A stretch of 64,000 nt of DNA from the NCBI GenBank assembly GCA_963971285.1, contig OZ020255.1, positions 17,628,931-17,692,930 of the forward strand. The letters run 5' to 3'. Origin of the DNA: Astropecten irregularis (taxonomy: Eukaryota > Echinodermata > Asteroidea > Paxillosida > Astropectinidae). A program made the position numbers and the translations under genes. Positions 1,663 through 53,186 of this stretch are shown here, piece after piece. The notes under the pieces were generated by a model that was not told the origin of the DNA, did no database searches, and saw only the letters and a program-made list of their open reading frames with translations. Within the stretch, counting starts at the first letter, position 1. Each line of letters starts with the position of its first letter.

Positions 1663-4600
1663 CTACAAAGACAAGACAAACATGTTCCTATTATAATCAT
1701 CAAATAACCACAAGGGAAACTGACTGAACTTAAAGTCATTGAAAAGTGAACAAAGAAACATTGACTGGAGCGGGATTCGAACCGGCGACCTTCTGAATAC
1801 CGTACAGGCGCTCAACCAACTGAGCTATCCAGCCCTACGTTGGTGGTGACCCCTATAGTCCATTATCTTTGTTCGTTAGGCAGTCAGAAGCCTGGTTTTA
1901 ACAGATCTTATGAGTACAGATCGTACTGGAATGCAGCTTCAAGGAGCTTCAAGTCACACTCACCTGATTGGTCATCTTTCCTCGCCTTGGAGAGCAGCTC
2001 GCTGGCGTCGGATGACATCAGCTCCGTCTCTGGGATGGCATCGCTGGGCACCGCCTGCTGACTCTCCACGTCGTCGCTGAAGAACCACTCACAGTGCTGG
2101 ATGATGCTCTCGATGATGCAACACTGGTCTGACATGTCCGTCACCATGGTCACCATGCTGTTGTCACCCGAACGGATGAGGGTGGGACCAAAGACGATGG
2201 CAAGATTGCGAACCTTGACGAGAAAAGACAGCAAGAGATTAACGAAACGCAGAACCACAGAACTGAGACTGAAATTGGAAATTGAATAAGGATACCAAAC
2301 TGTGATGAATTTTAGCGAAGACAGAGCTTCCATGCCAAAATGTTCCGTGCTAGGAGGTCAATTCTGTCATTGATACACAGACTCATTCTGTTAGAAACGG
2401 GAGAAGAAGAAAAAAGATCCTACCTCCATTTTGTTCACTTCCGAGTTCTGCGACACCATCCGAAGGTGACCGGCCAGACACTTGAAGGTCTCGTAGTGGT
2501 GGTCAGGCAGGTTGTGGATCTGCCGTCGCAGGGCCCACATGCGCTCCGCCGGGTCCTTGCAACGATTGGCTGCGATGAAGTCCTTGTACTGGTCTCCCGG
2601 GACCAAGGGGTTTGGCAGCTTGCGGAAGAACATCTTCAAGAGACTGCTGACCACGTTGACGTCACGCCATCGCTGTCAATAAACAGACAAAAAAGGCATC
2701 CAAACAGTCAAAACTCTGTATTCTGAACAGGCTCTGATTCTCTGACAGGCTCTGACTATTAGGGACACCACCAACGTAGGGCTGGATAGCTCAGTTGGTA
2801 GAGCGCCTGTACGGTATTCAGGAGTTCGCCGATTCGAATCCCGCTACAGTCATTTTTTCTTTGTTCAGCTTTCAGGCTCTGATTCAATAGAAAGGAAAGG
2901 GCCAATTTTCATCAAGGTAGATACAGATAAGGAAAAAAAATGATCATTTTCACGCGATGCCGTGTTGCTGGTAGCGACATTTCGGCTGCTGGAACTGCTA
3001 GCCTTCATCAGGCAATCAGGCTCTGACTGATTTCTCATAAGAATTTATATTTTTCAAAGCAAAACGACAGTTTCAGCAAGAACTTGAAGATGGTTCTGTT
3101 TGAAATTCTAAAACAGTCAAAGCCAGACCAATATTACCGTGTACAAAACTATACATTATTATTTTGTGGTTTAAGTTGAATTTATAATAAAACCTAAAAT
3201 TGAACTTTATTTATTTTGTTGAAGAAATGTTTGATCGGTTCAAGAATCTTTCTAAAACCTGGATGAAAATGGTTTTATTCACAAAACCAAGCACAGACAT
3301 CGACTTTTCAAGACTACTCGACTGACAGACTGATCTGACGGCACGACCATGGAGGTAGGAAACACCCGCCATTACTGCATCAGGGGATGTACACCCTGCA
3401 GTATAGAGTCAGCGGCCGTAAACTCTGTTATTGCCGGACAAAAGGCGGGCGGGGACACTGCAGTAATGGCGGATGGTATGCCATTCCGTCGGATCAGTGT
3501 ATTGATGGACAGACAAGTTAATGAGAGGAACTTACACTATCTCCGAAATGAGCCTCCTCTGGTCCATCCTTCAGGTCTTCCTGGAGGTAAGACACTCCGG
3601 CAGTGTTGCCTGGTACCCGGTAGATGCCCACCGTCTCTAAGCCTATCTCCTCCACGATGTTACAGCAGATGTCCAGGAACATGGGTACAAACTGCATAGA
3701 AACACAAACAAAATTTCAAACTTTTACTTACAGAGGTAGATATTTTAGACTTGAGGTGGTCAGAACAGGTGTAGTCAGGTAAACTGAGGGCAGGTGCTTG
3801 TTGTCAGCTGATATGATTGAGCTTGGTGCTTCAGAAAAAAATTATGGAAGAGGACATAACTCGAAAAATGATAACAAATTATTACGGCAGGAAAACGCCG
3901 GATTTTAATCAATGTTTACAGCTGCAAGATCTGAGAATAAATTTTGCACAGGTTGTAAACAATTTCAGGACTGAGGTCGATTTCACGAAACTCATCGTAA
4001 CTTATTATCAATCGTAGGACTTGTGATACATTGCAGCCCCACATAGAAGTCGAAGGATACGATGGGTTATCCTTCGTATCTCAAGTTACGGTAGGGCTTC
4101 GTGAAATCGACCCCCGGTGACCTTAAAGAAGTCAGATTTTTTATGGAGAGTAAGTACCTCGTTTGTTTCTGAAGGAGTGCATTTCTCCAAGTGAACGCCG
4201 AATGTCAAGCTCCGTAGCTCCTCGGCCGTTGGCTGCCCCCACGTGCTGGCCCCGCCCCCTTTCTTCTTCATCTTGTGCTTCATCTTGCCGGCCAGGCCCG
4301 TGGACTGCTTCTTGGCGGGCTGGGCCAGGCCCGGGGAGGGGCTGCGGCTGCCCTTCTTGCGGGTGTTGGGTGGAGACAGGACGTGTTTGGAGACGGACTG
4401 GCCGGCGGAGGTGCTGCTGGCGTCGTGCTGCTGGGTCTTCCGCATGATGATGTCGGCGCTTAATATATCCTGCAGGAAGCAAGAAATCAAGAACATCAAC
4501 CTCAACTATTCCATCTTGAGAAACAAGACACAAGAAACGCCAGAATGACAACAGAATCAAGAATGGCTTTACTGCTTAACACGACAGAATGATTCTTTTA

Positions 4601-22600: not shown

Positions 22601-25600
22601 GTGGCTTCGCAAAAGGTGCTCCACTTCCATTGAAAGGTTCACGGCTGTAGCATTGGGAGGCTGGGTTAACATGGTTTAGGCCGAGAATTACACATACATG
22701 TGTTTAACAAGGTAAACTGCCCGGAGTGCATAGACTATATCTAGCGACATTTTAACCATGGGACCAGCCAGCCACTCCAGACAGCCACAACATGCTTGAA
22801 TGTGGATTATGCAAATACCTAGAAAAACATGTTTCATTTACATTAACAAATTGTTGTCTCTGTGTGGCTTGACTACTCAGAGACTTTAGGAATCCGAGGA
22901 CAAGAAACTTGGGAGGGGGAAAAAAACATCAACAGCTCGTCGAGGTTATGAGCATACCATCTGTTAAAAGCGAGCGTTCTTTCGATTCTTCTTCCTTCCA
23001 GGCTTAAGACAAACTTGAAATTTGTTTTTCAATTTTCAAGTTGAATACCAGCGGTTTGCCAAAGAGAAGCAGAATTAATGCACGTCCTGAGGCTTGGCTC
23101 CAGCTCCGGCTGTTTGGGATTACTTCCCGCTAGCCAGGACGTCTTAACCTTGTGAATGTTGGAATACAATTGCCTAAGTTCAACTCTGATATTTTCAAAA
23201 CTGCACAGATTGAAAAAATGTTTAGAAATTAGTATCAGAGGACAAAATACAGGTTAAAAAGCCGTTGATTTTGCGGCTAAAATGGGAAAACTGACAAATG
23301 GTGGAGTTAGAAACATTACACTTGGAGCCTAAAATGAAGAGAAGGCATGGTAGCCGCCGTAGACAAGAATATAGTCTGGTTTCTGCTCTCATTTTGAGGA
23401 CTCTATGAAACGGAATGAAACTTCCGAAATCAACGGATGATAACATTTTTCAAACAGACGAACAATGATAATTGACTATTTGGGACACCACCAACGTAGG
23501 GCTGGATGGCTCAGTTGGTAGAGTGCCTGTATGGTAATCAGGAGGTTGCCGGTTCGAATCCCGCTCCGGTAAATTTTTCTTTGTTCACCTTTCAATGATA
23601 CTTGTGATACAGGATACATTTACATGTGGCTTTAATGTATACAGTGTACACACAAATAATAATTGATTAAATTCCAGATTTAAAATGAGATACTTAGGCA
23701 GAAAAGTAAACATCAACAATCACACAACTTATTGACGATCAACGACAACAGTTAATTTTGTAATATAACCTGATCCCTTGCATAGTGCCTGCCATACTCT
23801 AAACAAAATTTCAAGGTTTTTGTGATTTATAAATTAGGTACATGAGTAAAAGTTTGGTAAGCAATGCAAAACTCAGAAAGATCTTGCAACAAGCATAGCA
23901 CGGGCAACTTCAGAATAATACAGTGTGTCCACTGCCAAGTATATTTTCTAACATAGATCTTACCCTTGCATGCCTTGGTTTGCCAAAGACCCAAAGGCCA
24001 AAGACTGTGGCTGATTAATATACCAGCAAGACACAGGGATGAAGCTAAATGTTATGCGATAACAGACAGAATCTACAGCAGTACAAGAGCTTCCATGCGA
24101 TACAGGCCCGACCGAACAGCCTCCACGAATCACTCATCCGTCGTCGGACGGCCAACATTCACGAGGACTTTAAACTGTAAAAAAATTCTCGCCCTATCTT
24201 ATCCATCTGTTCGTGTACATTCTACGTACATTCGCTGCACACATTCGAGACCATACTCTAGATTCCAGATTAAAAAAAGCCACCTCTCTGTAGTCATAAG
24301 GGTGTCTCTGTGTGAACCTGTGATATTTGTCTCCCGAATGCTATAGTCCGTCAACTGGCAGCGACTGATCGCAAAGATAGGGCAACAATACCCCAGGTTT
24401 ACACTCCAACAATTTGGGTCAAGGGGCTTTAGAACGATGTCAGCGATTTTAAAATCTGAGAATTGCAGCTAGGCGAGGCTTATAATATGATTTAACAGCT
24501 AGCTAAAAATAATAATAATGACGAGTGTAGTTGAGTTGACAGTGTGTGTGTGTTTGAACAAGATGGACGTTTACAATACAGAGTTCTCAATATTATAAAG
24601 TGATAATAGAGATTTTTCTTGCTATCCAGCTTTTTAAATGGCACATAGGGGAATTTATAAGGACTTTTTCTCAAAATTTATGTCAAATCCAACCTGACTG
24701 ATCTGTTTCTGATAAATGACTAATACTTCTGTTGACATGTGTAGGTGTACATTGTACATGTATTGTCCTCATAACAAGAATATAATGTGGAGAAAAGGAC
24801 ATTATATATATATACAATGTACACATGTATCATTCAAATGCTTAATGTAATGTAATGTAATGTGCATGTACATTATGCATCTAACATGTAATGTTAATGT
24901 ACATACATGTATGTATAAATGTCCTTTTCTCCACATTATAGTCTTGTTATGAGGACAATACATACAACACGTCAATGTCAACAGAAATATTAGTCATTTA
25001 TCATATGTACACCTGTATTACTTTGGCAATAAACACAATTTACTACTCACATGTACAACCAATCCTGTTCGCCGGATAAGCAGTATATCCACAACGTAGG
25101 TATACATGTCTAAAAAACACTGATTCAACAGTATACAATCCCTCCTTTCCAGTACAAATCCCACCACAACCGATCACGACCAAATTCCGAGCGACTTCTG
25201 AGAAAATACTCCTGTTTTTGCTCCTTTTGTGTCGGATATACTTGTGTATACACAGTACAACACTGTCTGACACTTTTTTTCAGTCTACATTTGCAATCTG
25301 CGCTGGTGATGCATGCATGATAAAACCAATGTACAATGCTACATGGCCCTGAAGCCATTCATATTGTAATAACTGTCCGTCATCGGAGTGTGAAGTCACT
25401 CTCTTCACCTTGAAAAGAAAAGTCTGAATAATAATCAAAACAACCAACAAAAACAATCTCTGCGGTAACAATTCGCAATCAGATCAGAATGAGTGTACTG
25501 CTAAACCGTGCCGTTTACTTAATAACACAGCCTTGATGTTTTATAGGATTTTCAATCATGATGTGAAATTGATACAGGGGTGTGCTAATGTGTACAGAAC

Positions 25601-31600: not shown

Positions 31601-34600
31601 TTTTAATGAATTCCAGAAAATCTAATTATGGACTGATCCCCATGACTGAATTTTTTTCCTCCTTTTTAAACGGAAATCCAAAGCCGCCTGTTATTATTAT
31701 TATGCATAAATGTACAAGGAGCAAAGTTATATGCACAAGTTTCAAAATTTGTAAGTGATTAATGGTATGATACTGTATTATGGAATGTACAGACATGTAA
31801 TATGGTTTTACACAAGAGACATAAAAGGTACAGTATACGTACAGTCTGACAGTAGACATGTAGCCCTACATTTACATTGTACATAATGTTCGTGAATACA
31901 GGCTTATACAAATTACAATGTACATGTATGTGTGTAAAATACTGCCCTATTGTATGTACAAGTACTGTAATCATAATGGATTGCTGGTATGCCTGGCAGC
32001 CGAGGGCGCTAATATCTGCAACGTAGCCAGCGCTTTGTAACTTAAAAAAAAAAGGCGCTTAATAAATGTAATAATTATTATTATTACATGTAAATGTATG
32101 TAGTATCAGTACAAACTACATGTATGTAGGCCTACAATTATTGTGTCTGTACTGTGCAGATTACAATCATAGTATTTGATCACTTTTTGTGGAATGTGTT
32201 TGGATCCCGGAATATACTATGCGATACAAAAAGTTCAATGTAAAAACTCCAATTCCTAAGTTACATTACCTCACACCGTTTAGTTAAATGACTTGCAAAA
32301 GGTGCTGCCGACCCAATCAGTAAAATCAAAGAAATAACGGGCCATGACCTCCGTTTTAATAAGACAAAAAAAAAACCCTAGAGGTATATATTTAGCACGA
32401 CCTCGGGGGCAGACGTTATCTGATGTCCCCATTCTGATGGGGTCCCGGCAGCAGCCTGTGTAGCCCTAGGAGTAATACAGGAAACGTTTAATAAAGGGAG
32501 GACCCGGTCATCCTATCCTGGACTGTACTACATAGGGTGATAGCTGGTCCCTAATGACATGGCCGGATTCCTGCCGACTGCGATAAAACACACGTGAATT
32601 TAACATGAGGGGATGGGGAGGGTTTTTTTTTTTCAGCATAATAATACATGTACAATGTCATGTTAGGAAGATAACGAGGTCGCCCATTACTAAGTTCGGC
32701 ATCCATGGCTATTTAAAGAAAGGTTACCCCTAATAAATAATCCAAACGATAATTTAGAAGAAGTGACTTGATCTTGAGTTGGAAAAATATGGCCTTTATA
32801 CAAAATGAGGCTTGAGGCTAGGTTTGGGATTTATTTTGCTACCCTCATTTTGTGTCCTAAATGAAATCAAAGGCTTGAGATACATGGCAAAGCTGGAGCC
32901 TTTCTTCGGCTTCGTCATGTGGCCCCATGTGGGGCATCAAATGGCGGTAGTGAAATAAATCACTGAAATTCAGTTTCCTTCCTCTCCAGAAAATGTTCAC
33001 GTCAAACTTTGTAAAAAAAAACAACGTTTCCACGAATATTATATTCCACTGTGGTCATGGTGGTAATATTTTGCGTATGTTCGCATTGGATGAGTTGCAA
33101 CTTCCGCAAACTTTCTGCCTTTTCCACAAAACTTGATCAATCATATCGAATACAGCATTCACGTCAGACTTCGTAACAAAAAAAGTTTCCAGGAATATCA
33201 TATTCCGCAAGCGGTTATATTTTGTGGATGTCCGCATAAATATGTAATTTCAGCTTGCACAAACTTCATATGCATTTTCTACAAAACTTGACCAATTATA
33301 CAGGATGTACAATGTTCACGTCAGACTTGGTTAAAAAAAAAAAGTTTCCACGAATATTACGTTCCACAGTGGTAACATTTTGTGTATGTCCGCAATAGAT
33401 TAATTACATCTTCCGCAAGGTCGGGCCTTTTCCCATACATAACTTGATCAATTTCATACCGGATGCACACGCACAGTGAATTGGTGAGGTGGCACAAATC
33501 ATTGACACTGTCACTGTGATCAGCGATCCTAACAGAGGTCACAAATTCTACACTAAACTTTTCAACAACTCACAAAATAACAGAGTTTGATCTGTTCCTA
33601 GCTCTATGGTTTGAATTACTCTTCAGATACAGAGTTGACCCTGTGAAATGTCCCCCTGTGGAGTGTAAGCATGTAACCTACAGGCCTACAGTCAATGAAC
33701 AACACTTGACTACCAGTATTTGGAGAGAATACTGTCCAGCTGTCTATTGATTTTGTTTTCCTTGCACAATTCAAATCAAATGGTGCCTAAGTTGATGATT
33801 TTTGACACAATATTGCATTACAATTACAGTTTTTCTATGTACATGAATGCCACAGGTCTAGTGAACAAAGTTCAGGTCTAGTAAAACATGTAAAATGCTT
33901 CAGTTACTAGACCTGCTGTCCAGTGCTATTGTTCACGAAATTCAAGCCCTGATGACAGCGACACCAGAGTTTGTAATTTCATCAAATTGGCAAAAGGGCA
34001 ATTCCAGCGTAACGGACATGACAATTACACAGTATTTGCCTTTTTCAGAGGATCATGAAGTAGGATTGGCAGTTTGCAAACAATTTTAATTAGGCTTATC
34101 AGACACATTTAACTATCAGTGACATATGTAGTAAATTTTATATAATTTCATTGAACAGTTGTAGAGAAAATGCACTTCTTGTGACCGTAACGGACTTGAT
34201 GTCATGTCCGTTACGGTCACAAGAAGTGCATTTTCTGATGTCATGTCCGTTACGGTCACAAGAAGTGCATTTTCTCTACAACTGTTCAATGAAATTATAT
34301 AAAATTTACTACATATGTCACTGATAGTTGTGACAACTGTTATGTGTCTGATAAGCCTAATTAAAATTGTTTGCAAACTGCCAATCCTACTTTATGATCC
34401 TCTAAAAAAGACAAAAAATGTGAAATTGTCATGTCCGTTACGCTGGAATTGCCCAAAAGCTTTCCAACGCTACTCCCCAAAAGACCAACATAAATACACG
34501 AAGGGCAAGTACACGTAGGCCTATACCGTAAATCATTGACAAACAGTTGTTTTTCTGTTGTAGGCCAACAATAGACCAACCAATTTGACCATGATAGCCT

Positions 34601-50446: not shown

Positions 50447-51444
50447 GGGTAGTTGGTGACTTTTCATAGGACCAAAGACAGGATTTTGTTCAATGTTTTA
50501 ATTGATGGCAAGCTAGACTCTGATACCTTCCTCCATGAGTGAACTATTTAATTAAGCTAGAAAAGTTGTAGGGATTGGGTATGGGAGCAGTCGCGGGGGA
50601 AACACGAGATATTGATCATTTTCTTGGCGACAGATTCAGAGGATCCATGTTTTGCCATTGGGATCATCTTGACTTACAACATCAAGACATTTTATCATTG
50701 TGTGGGTGGAGTGGGCACAAACCCCGCCCCTTGTGCCATCCCTCTTGTCCTTGTGAAAAATAATAGATTCCTCCCGTGTTTCTCCCAAACTGTGCCCCTT
50801 TTGACGATTTTTGAGATTTCAGTAGAAGCCTCGGCGATTCACAGAAACAGGTGTATGATAGTGGTGGAAGGGTGGTGAGTTGGTGATCGCTGCTAAGGAA
50901 CAAGAGCATAATTAGAAAGCTTGCCAAAGAAGTAGTGGTGAAGGGGCTATGGTGGAGTCCAAAAAGATACAGTTAGGGGACTTGGTGATGATGGGGACCG
51001 GGAGTGGTCAAAGATACCCCCCCCCCCCCCCATCGATTAACCACGCCCATCACATCCCATCGCTCTATGAAGAGCGCCCTCTCTTGACCGATACCTTAGA
51101 TTTCGTCTGGTAACCAACCACCCCCTTACATTGCAAAGCACACTGTCGGTTGGGTAGTCGTCCAGTGCTATAGAAACGTGACGCGACGCCGTCAAATTAA
51201 TTGTTAAAACTAAAAAGTTTGCTGATAAAGTAAGAAAACGTTTTGTCATAACATCCCCCCCTCCCTTTGATCGCCAAGCGGCCCCATTACGATATATTGT
51301 TTTCCTGCAAGTACGCTTGACCACTGTTTTTGCTTGTAAATATTATTACGTGAATATTTAAAAAAACAACTAAGAACAATGATTATGATTTATCATCATC
51401 ATGAAATGATGAATGATCATGTTTAGCCTACCTCTTTTTTTATC

Positions 51445-52498
51445 GGTTTCAGGTCAACTCGGTCCGTAACCAACTCGGTCCGAGTCAACTCGGTCCGTGA
51501 CCAACTCGGTCCGTAACCAACTCGGTCCATGACCAACTCGGTCTGTAACCAACTCGGTCCGAGGCCAACTCGGTCCGTAACCAACTCGGTCCGTGGCCAA
51601 CTCGGTCCGTGACCAACTCGGTCCCTATGGGAAAATGCACGCAAAAACGTCTGGTAATTTTGTTGCAGCAAAACGAGTACGAAGTCTCGCAAATTGCGTG
51701 AATTAAACTATTTATTTAGGTCTATTTATTTATTTATTCATTTATCATCTTAAAAACATTAAAAGAATGAAAAATACATTGGCAGGTGCTGCCCAGGGCC
51801 AGGGCCTGACAAAAAGTTATAAAAAAAACCAAAAAAAAAACCCTGTCTTCAAAAGACGTGCCTTCCCAAACACCTGCCAATTAATTATAAATCTTATGTT
51901 AAATTATGTTATATGTATATACACAGATTAATCAAAACAAAGCTAAAAAATCAAAAACAAAAACACAAAACAATCATCATTATTATTCATTAATTGATTT
52001 ATTAATTCTAAACATAAAAAGCACATTTTCATAAGGCATTTGACTTCGTGTATGATTTAATTAATATTTTAATTAAAATTGTATTGTGCCATTTTATCAA
52101 ATAATTATGGTATCAACATAATAAGACATAATTTATTTCTTCACGGTTTCAGCCACAAGCAAAACATATTATGTTATGATGACATTAAAAACATTAATGC
52201 AAATAGCCTACATGTTGTACACTGCTGCAGCAAACTGCATGGATTCTTGTTTGTGTACGTTTTCCCATAGGGACCGAGTTGGTCACGGACCGAGTTGGTC
52301 ACGGACCGAGTTGGTCACGGACCGAGTTGGCCTCGGACCGAGTTGGCCTCGGACCGAGTTGGCCACGGACCGAGTTGGCCACGGACCGAGTTGGCCACGG
52401 ACCGAGTTGGCCACGGACCGAGTTGGCCTCGGACCGAGTTGGTCACGGACCGAGTTGACTCGGACCGAGTTGGTTACGGACCGAGTTGACTGGCACCC
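51445..52498. mobile_element. TU-like foldback transposon with minisatellite inverted termini
   Basis: Left arm 51451-51628 has about 11 head-to-tail copies of a 16-bp unit containing CAACTCGGTCC. Right arm 52271-52490 has about 14 copies of its reverse complement. The four outermost units match one for one between arms, including a 15-bp variant, and the inner edges share CCCATAGGGACCGAG. The outermost bases are also imperfectly inverted (GGTTTCAG and, reversed, GGGTGCCAG). TTTTTATC occurs at both sides (51437-51444 and 52499-52506), an 8-bp target duplication. The loop is AT-rich and has no credible ORF. This matches sea-urchin TU foldback elements as I remember them. Confidence 0.85.
51629..52255. 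other. AT-rich loop of the foldback element, with a small internal hairpin
   Basis: No gene is visible. A secondary inverted repeat, ATTGGCAGGTGCTG at about 51778 against CACCTGCCAATTA near 51870-51884, sits in the left half. TATTTATT runs and A-rich tracts fill the rest. Confidence 0.6.
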
Positions 52499-53036
52499 TT
52501 TTTATCTGTCACATTCAGTCAGTGTCATCAGGTCATGGTCATCATGTCTCATAACCAAGTTTCAGTTGTGAAGATAAACTTTATAAACACTGTTTGGAGA
52601 TTTCCAGGAAAGTTTGAAAACTGAAATTGTCTTGTGTTAATTCTGAAAATTGATCAGGACTTGGACAAAAAAATAACTTGATAGGCCCTAGTTTTAGCTA
52701 ACGTTAGGCTTATTATTTATTCAATCAGTGTCAATGATAAGTGCCGCAGTTAAAAAGAAATCCCAAATGGGCCTAAATGTTAAATTCAAAATTGCTCATG
52801 GCCCAGGTTTAAACTTGCGCAGGCATCAAAATTGTGCTCAACATCAATATTTGTTGACACAAGAGAAGAAAAACTCTGATAAAAATCGATCATCTAGGTC
52901 TACCTGAAATCTCAATGGTATTTTTTTATATATCATATCTAAAAGCGTTAGGCCTACTGATGATCTGACAGGTGTATGAAGTGACTGTAATTTTGCATGG
53001 AGAGACATCTGCGGATTTTGTCCTACAGTACCGACG

Positions 53037-53186
53037 ATGGCTCGCAGTGTCGCCTGGCGTCGTACCATCACCGATGCGGCATCATGGCATCAGGATCAAG
53101 CCCAGTCGGCTACCATCTACATCCTGAGAGAGACAGGACCCACGGGGTTCCTCTTGAAGGAAGAAGGTGAAGCCAAGAAGTTTAAG
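53037..53186 (+). CDS. ZSWIM2: ZSWIM2 exon 1: conserved N-terminus
   Basis: It encodes residues 1-50, with SWHQDQAQSATIYILRETGP and TGFLLKEE, the ZSWIM2 signature before the SWIM finger. Donor TTTAAG|GTAAGG, phase 0. The 5' UTR extends left of 53037 for an unknown distance. Confidence 0.95.

What the first reader, a model, noticed from the sequence alone, without database searches (positions are those of the whole stretch)
51437..52506. Complete TU-like foldback transposon between two divergent genes
Two minisatellite arrays of the same 15-16 bp unit face each other in opposite orientation around a 630-base AT-rich loop. The outer units match in order between arms, the inner junctions match, and an 8-bp direct repeat (TTTTTATC) flanks the whole. 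That is the architecture I remember for sea-urchin TU elements. The intact target duplication shows it moved as a unit. It lies about 530 bases upstream of the ZSWIM2 start codon and 1.4 kb from the inferred RhoGAP first exon, so it could affect either promoter.
Basis: partly seen in the sequence, partly recalled or inferred. Interest (0 to 1): 0.75.

Follow-up and report, generated by a model that had tools for sequence, protein, structure and literature searches.

The report
Sea-star foldback transposon, Mutator/Phantom type
This is a complete, recently mobile, gene-less jumping DNA element in what is very probably a sea star, one of several hundred copies, whose repeat-array ends resemble those of an element in the same genome that carries a Mutator-type (Phantom) transposase.

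Summary
Element 51445-52498 (1,054 bp) has two facing arrays of a 16-bp unit (11 and 14 units) between two copies of TTTTTATC. Of 30 copies read (the window's included) all end at the same two points; 27 have a perfect 8-bp target duplication, 2 have one mismatch, 1 has it displaced (control 0 of 570). Cores lie 0.2-3% from their consensus, so these copies are young. No transposase domain was found in the element, and no MULE, Phantom, hAT or Merlin match lies within 10 kb of the 257 left ends that could be listed. The one MULE locus read (of 33) is a 5.1-kb FLYWCH+MULE element with the same end plan: 10 nt, inverted 16-bp arrays, unequal ends, 8-bp duplication. A nested third family has intermediate ends. 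hAT (30 of 66) and Merlin (9 of 9) loci read lack such arms. Best reading: a non-autonomous Phantom-class Mutator foldback moved in trans. The hAT expectation is not supported; kinship to sea-urchin TU was not testable. A new family of a known kind.

The parts
51437..51444 (.). left copy of the 8-bp target-site duplication TTTTTATC
51445..51454 (+). left (A) terminal stretch GGTTTCAGGT
   Evidence: same end in 30 of 30 loci, L025 with mismatches; 266 exact genome matches of the 18-mer GGTTTCAGGTCAACTCGG, reversed control 0
51455..51624 (+). A arm: 11 units CAACTCGGTCC plus 4-5 variable bases, period 16 (one 15-bp interval between units 2 and 3)
   Evidence: 11 units in 29 of 30 copies
51625..52270 (+). 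AT-rich core, beginning and ending with the inverted junction CTATGGGAAAA / TTTTCCCATAG; no transposase domain found
   Evidence: six open frames of the element scanned against Pfam, one match only, weak and below its cut-off
52271..52488 (-). B arm: 14 units in reverse orientation
   Evidence: 12 units in 23 of 30 copies, 14 only here
52489..52498 (-). right (B) terminal stretch, reading inward GGGTGCCAGT
   Evidence: 271 exact genome matches of GGGTGCCAGTCAACTCGG, reversed control 0
52499..52506 (.). right copy of the 8-bp target-site duplication TTTTTATC

Best explanation
A non-autonomous (MITE-like) foldback DNA transposon of the Phantom class of the Mutator (MULE) superfamily. It carries no recognisable protein. 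A FLYWCH+MULE transposase made by another element recognises the terminal stretch and the 16-bp unit arrays, mobilises the element and inserts it with an 8-bp staggered cut that is filled in to give the 8-bp duplication. Shown: element limits, 8-bp duplications, recent amplification, no transposase domain in the open frames scanned, and a sister element with transposase and matching end plan. Inferred: that a transposase of this class, rather than another class that makes 8-bp duplications, moves this family; that the unit arrays are multiple transposase-binding sites (binding to tandem repeats was shown for Galileo in PMC3688188, passages seen); and that the movement is cut-and-paste.
For: Copies: 417 first-look candidates, 40 scored, the 39 others at 94-98%; 266 A ends and 271 B ends, reversed controls 0. 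Limits: 30 of 30 loci read (window included) end alike; duplication 27 perfect, 2 with one mismatch, 1 displaced by 7 bp; control 0 of 570 with <=1 mismatch. Of 20 copies picked for odd spacing, 15 perfect, 2 with one mismatch, 3 with 2-6. One empty-site-like match of 50 joined flanks compared with the loci in hand: L026's flanks run through in a related repeat in L042 with one target copy (one extra A), 146 of 193 aligned columns identical with 36 gaps; a second place in L042 matches 34 of 35 from the target rightward. Superfamily: of 33 MULE hits one was read: a 509-aa protein with MULE (1.1e-12) and FLYWCH (4.1e-8) in a 5,111-bp element with CATGATTC duplicated 8 of 8, six left units and 18 right units (loose match) of 16 bp, first unit at nt 11, unequal ends. 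End identity in the register set by the duplications: 14-15 of 26 with the window ends, single-test permutation p 0.0006-0.0014. A third family nested in L044 (879 bp, duplication CCTACATG; the target is found uninterrupted in 29 of 30 copies of its host, the 30th not matched) has ends sharing 16-19 of 26 with the window ends and 14-16 with the Phantom ends. Published parallel: Tm1 of nematodes, a Phantom-type foldback with unequal end motifs, arrays of mostly 14-bp units and an inner GGGAAAA-bearing motif (PMC3169594, sections 5 and 6 and passages).
Against: No transposase match lies within 10 kb of the 257 A ends that could be listed (of 266): MULE 0 of 33, Phantom-protein matches 0 of 91, hAT 0 of 66, Merlin 0 of 9; one MULE, one hAT and one Merlin match lie on contigs with no listed A end, and the nine unlisted ends lie late in the contig order. 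So no element with these exact ends and a transposase was found. The nearest matches to A ends are hAT ones, at 21 and 30 kb; two within 30 kb is what chance gives (2.1 expected). The Phantom unit differs (7 of 16 by eye). Tm1 duplications are mostly 9 bp. The end-similarity test uses short sequences, 15 pairs and no correction.
Confidence: 0.76

Rival explanations
1. Foldback of the hAT superfamily, as the first reader expected from the 8-bp duplication.
For: 8-bp duplications; 66 hAT-domain matches in the genome, two of them the nearest of all transposase matches to an A end, at 21 and 30 kb (chance expects 2.1 within 30 kb).
Against: The 30 hAT loci read (of 66) hold at most one isolated unit-like 10-mer each (4 loci) and no array within about 1.5 kb of the domain; no hAT match within 10 kb of a listed A end; ends begin GG, not the CAG-type start that I recall for hAT. 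36 loci were not read.
Confidence: 0.07
2. Merlin-superfamily foldback (8-9-bp duplication, terminal GG per PMC8101967, passages seen).
For: GG termini and 8-bp duplication fit; the genome has 9 Merlin-domain matches.
Against: 0 of 9 Merlin loci have the arms in the DNA held, about 1.5 kb each side; L036 has a simple 69-bp inverted repeat around the domain instead; none within 10 kb of a listed A end.
Confidence: 0.07
3. Member by descent of the sea-urchin TU family (compatible with the Phantom reading, or with TU being of another superfamily).
For: Shared architecture as I recall TU (15-bp unit arrays, long inverted repeats, 8-bp duplication); echinoderm hosts.
Against: No TU sequence could be compared; architecture alone is not descent, since foldbacks arise in several superfamilies (PMC4079207, PMC3169594, passages seen).
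Confidence: 0.25
4. A local inverted duplication of a minisatellite, not a transposon.
For: Minisatellites can duplicate in inverted orientation (general knowledge).
Against: Hundreds of dispersed ends, and copies with the same limits and target duplications.
Confidence: 0.005

Closest known systems
Tm1 (Phantom-class Mutator foldback, root-knot nematodes; PMC3169594)
   Same: Unequal short terminal motifs (CGGTTAA / CCTACCC against GGTTTCAG... / ...GGCACCC here), arms of 13-15-bp tandem units, GGGAAAA at the inner end of the arms, non-autonomous copies (one of 1,080 bp), FLYWCH+MULE partner; motif likeness judged by eye
   Different: Different unit sequence, mostly 9-bp duplications, described there as inactive and senescent; this family's copies are young
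The Phantom-class element in the same genome, G000:C8:38173241-38178351 (L090-L092)
   Same: 10 nt then 16-bp units in inverted arrays, unequal ends, 8-bp duplication, GTCA at nt 9-12 of both ends
   Different: Unit CACTTCGCCCAC- instead of CAACTCGGTCC-; carries the transposase; 5.1 kb
Family 2 nested in L044 (1043-1921)
   Same: Foldback with units mostly 15-16 bp, 8-bp duplication, ends with GTCAACTCG at the same place
   Different: Unit about CGACTCGCCCCTGAC; 879 bp; other core; its coding content was not scanned
TU elements of Strongylocentrotus purpuratus (recalled; cited as Lieberman et al. 1983 in PMC4079207)
   Same: Recalled: long inverted repeats with 15-bp unit arrays, 8-bp duplication
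Galileo (P superfamily foldback, Drosophila; PMC3688188)
   Same: Works alike: internally repeated long ends with transposase-binding sites in the repeats
   Different: P-type transposase; not claimed as a relative

Membership tests
Foldback-type DNA transposon | Long inverted repeats built of tandem units, able to fold back | tested here: met
Foldback-type DNA transposon | Fixed ends and target-site duplication in many dispersed copies | tested here: met
   30 of 30 ends, 29 of 30 duplications with <=1 mismatch; end counts
Phantom class of Mutator | FLYWCH+MULE transposase inside elements with the same ends | tested here: inconclusive
   Met by a sister family with similar ends (1 of 33 MULE loci read); not found with this family's exact ends
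Phantom class of Mutator | 8-10-bp target duplication | tested here: met
   range as given for Tm1 in PMC3169594
hAT | hAT transposase in elements with these ends | tested here: not met
   0 of 30 loci read (of 66) have an array; 0 of 66 within 10 kb of the 257 listed A ends; 36 loci not read
Merlin | DDE_Tnp_IS1595 transposase in elements with these ends | tested here: not met
   0 of 9 loci
Merlin | Terminal GG and 8-9-bp duplication | tested here: met
   not exclusive to Merlin
P superfamily | P-type transposase in elements with these ends | not tested
   no P-element family was searched
Sea-urchin TU | Unit and end sequence of TU | not testable with these tools
   no TU sequence held; one search listed 0 papers, one (an IS6 review, not opened); PMC4079207 only cites TU
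Sea-urchin TU | Inverted arrays of about 15-bp units with 8-bp duplication (recalled) | tested here: met

The most novel reading that the evidence does not exclude
The minisatellite-armed foldbacks of echinoderms, including the sea-urchin TU elements, are non-autonomous partners of Phantom-class Mutator transposases, and their short-unit arrays evolve quickly as transposase-recognition arrays, giving parallel families (GGTCC, GCCCC and GCCCA units) that co-exist and insert into each other in one genome.
Probability: 0.35. Interest if true: 0.6.

Novelty: new member of a known kind. Interest (0 to 1): 0.42.

Why it matters
It turns one puzzling minisatellite pair into a defined, young transposon family of several hundred copies in a sea star, and gives a candidate class of enzyme for it. 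Foldback elements were described in sea urchins decades ago, and I recall no known transposase for them; an armed element with an open FLYWCH+MULE gene in an echinoderm makes that question directly testable. Near-identical copies would also serve as markers of insertion polymorphism and as a case of transposon ends built of minisatellites.

Tried and rejected
hAT and Merlin as the source superfamily were tested by family searches and by reading flanks, and set aside as best reading. P-element families were not searched. L041, a 3.4-kb copy with this family's ends, looked like a possible autonomous member, but no Pfam match was found in two whole forward frames at E<=1 or in its ten longest inner open frames at E<=0.01, and parts of its interior are shared with L006, L033, L048, L050 and L051. 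L040 matches the standard copy at both sides with about 3 kb between. The element's own six open frames gave one Pfam match, UBA_RNF31 at E 0.0033 with 17.5 bits against a cut-off of 27, over nine residues, in a frame that runs past the element; I take it as chance. Joined flanks of 50 copies were compared only with the loci in hand. A paper-text search for the 11-mer listed ten papers; by their titles and abstracts none concerns transposons, none was opened. TU: one search listed nothing, one IS6 review that I did not open. The Phantom paper is not held. A search for family-2 ends was asked for and never answered, and one with the L041 interior likewise, so whether family-2 arms flank a transposase is open. 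The age statement rests on the 30 best-scoring copies, which favours young ones.

Full report
Host. The window lies at G000:C19:17628931-17692930 in an assembly of 475,729,200 bases in 168 contigs. Contig lengths listed here (39.04, 38.23, 28.81, 28.06, 27.22, 22.69, 22.99, 21.66, 20.61, 20.07, 18.85, 18.43, 15.15 and 14.44 Mb) fit chromosome lengths in Table 3 of the genome note for the sea star Astropecten irregularis to within 0.01 Mb (PMC11480709, first two of four parts of the text read); C19 would be chromosome 12. The species is therefore an inference.

The element. Window 51445-52498 is bounded by TTTTTATC at 51437-51444 and 52499-52506. Inward from each end come 10 nt (GGTTTCAGGT on the left, GGGTGCCAGT on the right) and then units of CAACTCGGTCC plus four or five variable bases: 11 on the left, 14 on the right, period 16 with one 15-bp step between units 2 and 3 in both arms. 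The three outermost units agree between arms; further in, the order differs. The 646-bp loop is AT-rich and begins and ends with an inverted CTATGGGAAAA junction. The strand folds on itself through the arms. Six open frames of the element gave no transposase domain and one weak, sub-threshold Pfam match that I take as chance.

Copies and movement. A search with the element gave 417 first-look candidates, of which 40 were scored; the 39 others have 94-98% identity. The 18-mer of the left end occurs 266 times and that of the right end 271 times; reversed controls gave none. In 30 of 30 fetched copies, one being the window's own, the ends are the same (L025 with 2 and 1 mismatches); the flanking 8-mers agree perfectly in 27, with one mismatch in 2, and in L024 the duplication is displaced by 7 bp; 0 of 570 control pairs had one mismatch or less. 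Of 20 copies chosen on five contigs because their two exact ends were unusually spaced, 15 have perfect duplications, 2 have one mismatch and 3 have two, five and six; L050 and L051 look like one duplicated region with a poly-C duplication. Cores differ by 0.16-3.0% from their consensus, pairwise mean 1.7%. The A arm has 11 units in 29 of 30 copies and the B arm 12 in 23 of 30; the window copy has 14, presumably a gain of two. These were the best-scoring copies, so older ones are under-sampled. One empty-site-like match was found: the joined flanks of L026 run through, with a single target copy, in a related repeat in L042, with gaps left of the junction.

Superfamily. Three transposase families were searched in the genome: Merlin (9 matches), hAT (66) and MULE (33). 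All 9 Merlin loci and 30 of the 66 hAT loci were read with about 1.5 kb on each side; none has the arms, though four hAT loci hold one isolated unit-like 10-mer, and none has a facing pair of comparable arrays (L036 has one 17-bp array outside the Merlin inverted repeats). One MULE locus of 33 was read. It is a 5,111-bp element with CATGATTC duplicated 8 of 8, a 509-aa protein with MULE and FLYWCH domains, and inverted arrays of 16-bp units CACTTCGCCCAC-, six on the left and 18 on the right by a match allowing two mismatches, the first unit starting at nt 11. In a search with its protein, two further places match at 100% and one at 96% over nearly the whole length, among 91 matches in all. FLYWCH+MULE is the domain pair of Phantom transposases (PMC3169594, passage).

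Linking the families. A second foldback sits inside copy L044: 879 bp, duplication CCTACATG, with the target uninterrupted in 29 of 30 copies of its host and the pattern not matched in L019. Its ends read GGAAACAG and GATTACAA, each followed by GTCAACTCGCCCC. With the register set by the duplications, all six ends of the three families carry eight variable bases and then GTCA. Window ends share 16-19 of 26 bases with family 2 and 14-15 of 26 with the Phantom element; family 2 shares 14-16 with the Phantom element; the uncorrected permutation p is 0.0014 or less in each of the 15 pairs. This chain is the main reason for the assignment. The nematode Tm1 family, a published Phantom-type foldback, has the same plan, including unequal ends and an inner GGGAAAA (PMC3169594, sections 5 and 6 read; likeness of motifs judged by eye).

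What is missing. No transposase gene was found with this family's exact ends: the 257 left ends that could be listed (of 266) have no MULE, Phantom, hAT or Merlin match within 10 kb. The closest are two hAT matches at 21 and 30 kb; 2.1 hAT matches within 30 kb are expected by chance. Since 0.1 to 1.0 matches within 10 kb are expected by chance for each class, the zero counts are not themselves a signal; they show only that no armed, transposase-bearing copy with exact ends was seen. The family is probably moved in trans, by a sister element with similar ends, by a copy with diverged ends, or by one absent from this assembly.

How it works. [quoted passage not shown] By analogy, the 16-bp units are probably an array of binding sites for the FLYWCH domain that help a non-coding element compete for enzyme. 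That step, and cut-and-paste movement, are inferred.

Context. The element's right duplication ends 530 bases before an ATG at 53037. Open frames downstream gave only RING-finger matches below Pfam cut-offs, best 4.2e-5 and 2.5e-5, besides two weak unrelated ones; the ZSWIM2 name is plausible but unproven here, the RhoGAP claim was not tested, and any promoter effect is speculation.

Verdict. A well-formed, young, non-autonomous foldback family in what is very probably a sea star, most likely of the Phantom class of Mutator. The architecture is known from nematodes and flies and, by recollection, sea urchins; the family and its link to a FLYWCH+MULE element in an echinoderm are what is new here. 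I did not see them in the listings of the word searches, which cover open-licence papers only.

Noticed in passing
L044:1043-1921: Second foldback family (unit about CGACTCGCCCCTGAC, 879 bp, duplication CCTACATG) nested in a copy of the window family; arrays of the same unit in L007 (2808 on) and L029 (3434 on).
   Followed up: partly
L041:301-3730: 3.4-kb element with the window family's ends and a perfect duplication but another interior, holding seven copies of CGGTAACGGAATTACG in both orientations (up to 2 mismatches); L048 shares part of that interior.
   Followed up: partly
L052: A 53-bp remnant holding both ends of the family back to back, with a flanking duplication of 7 of 8 bases.
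   Followed up: no
G000:C11 about 16.6-22.4 Mb: Transposase matches pile up here: 28 of 66 hAT and 30 of 91 Phantom matches, which suggests a transposon-rich block on this chromosome.
   Followed up: no
L036:261-346: A 17-bp unit array (TCTCACCGGTCGACCTG) about 750 bp outside a Merlin element with plain 69-bp inverted repeats.
   Followed up: partly
G000:C25:6161176, 6161834, 6163904: Three left ends of the window family within 3 kb, in both orientations, suggesting clustered or nested insertions.
   Followed up: no
window 34197-34275: Perfect 39-bp tandem duplication.
   Followed up: no
window 1762-1834 (-) and 23500-23572 (+): Two tRNA-Thr (GGT) genes on opposite strands.
   Followed up: no
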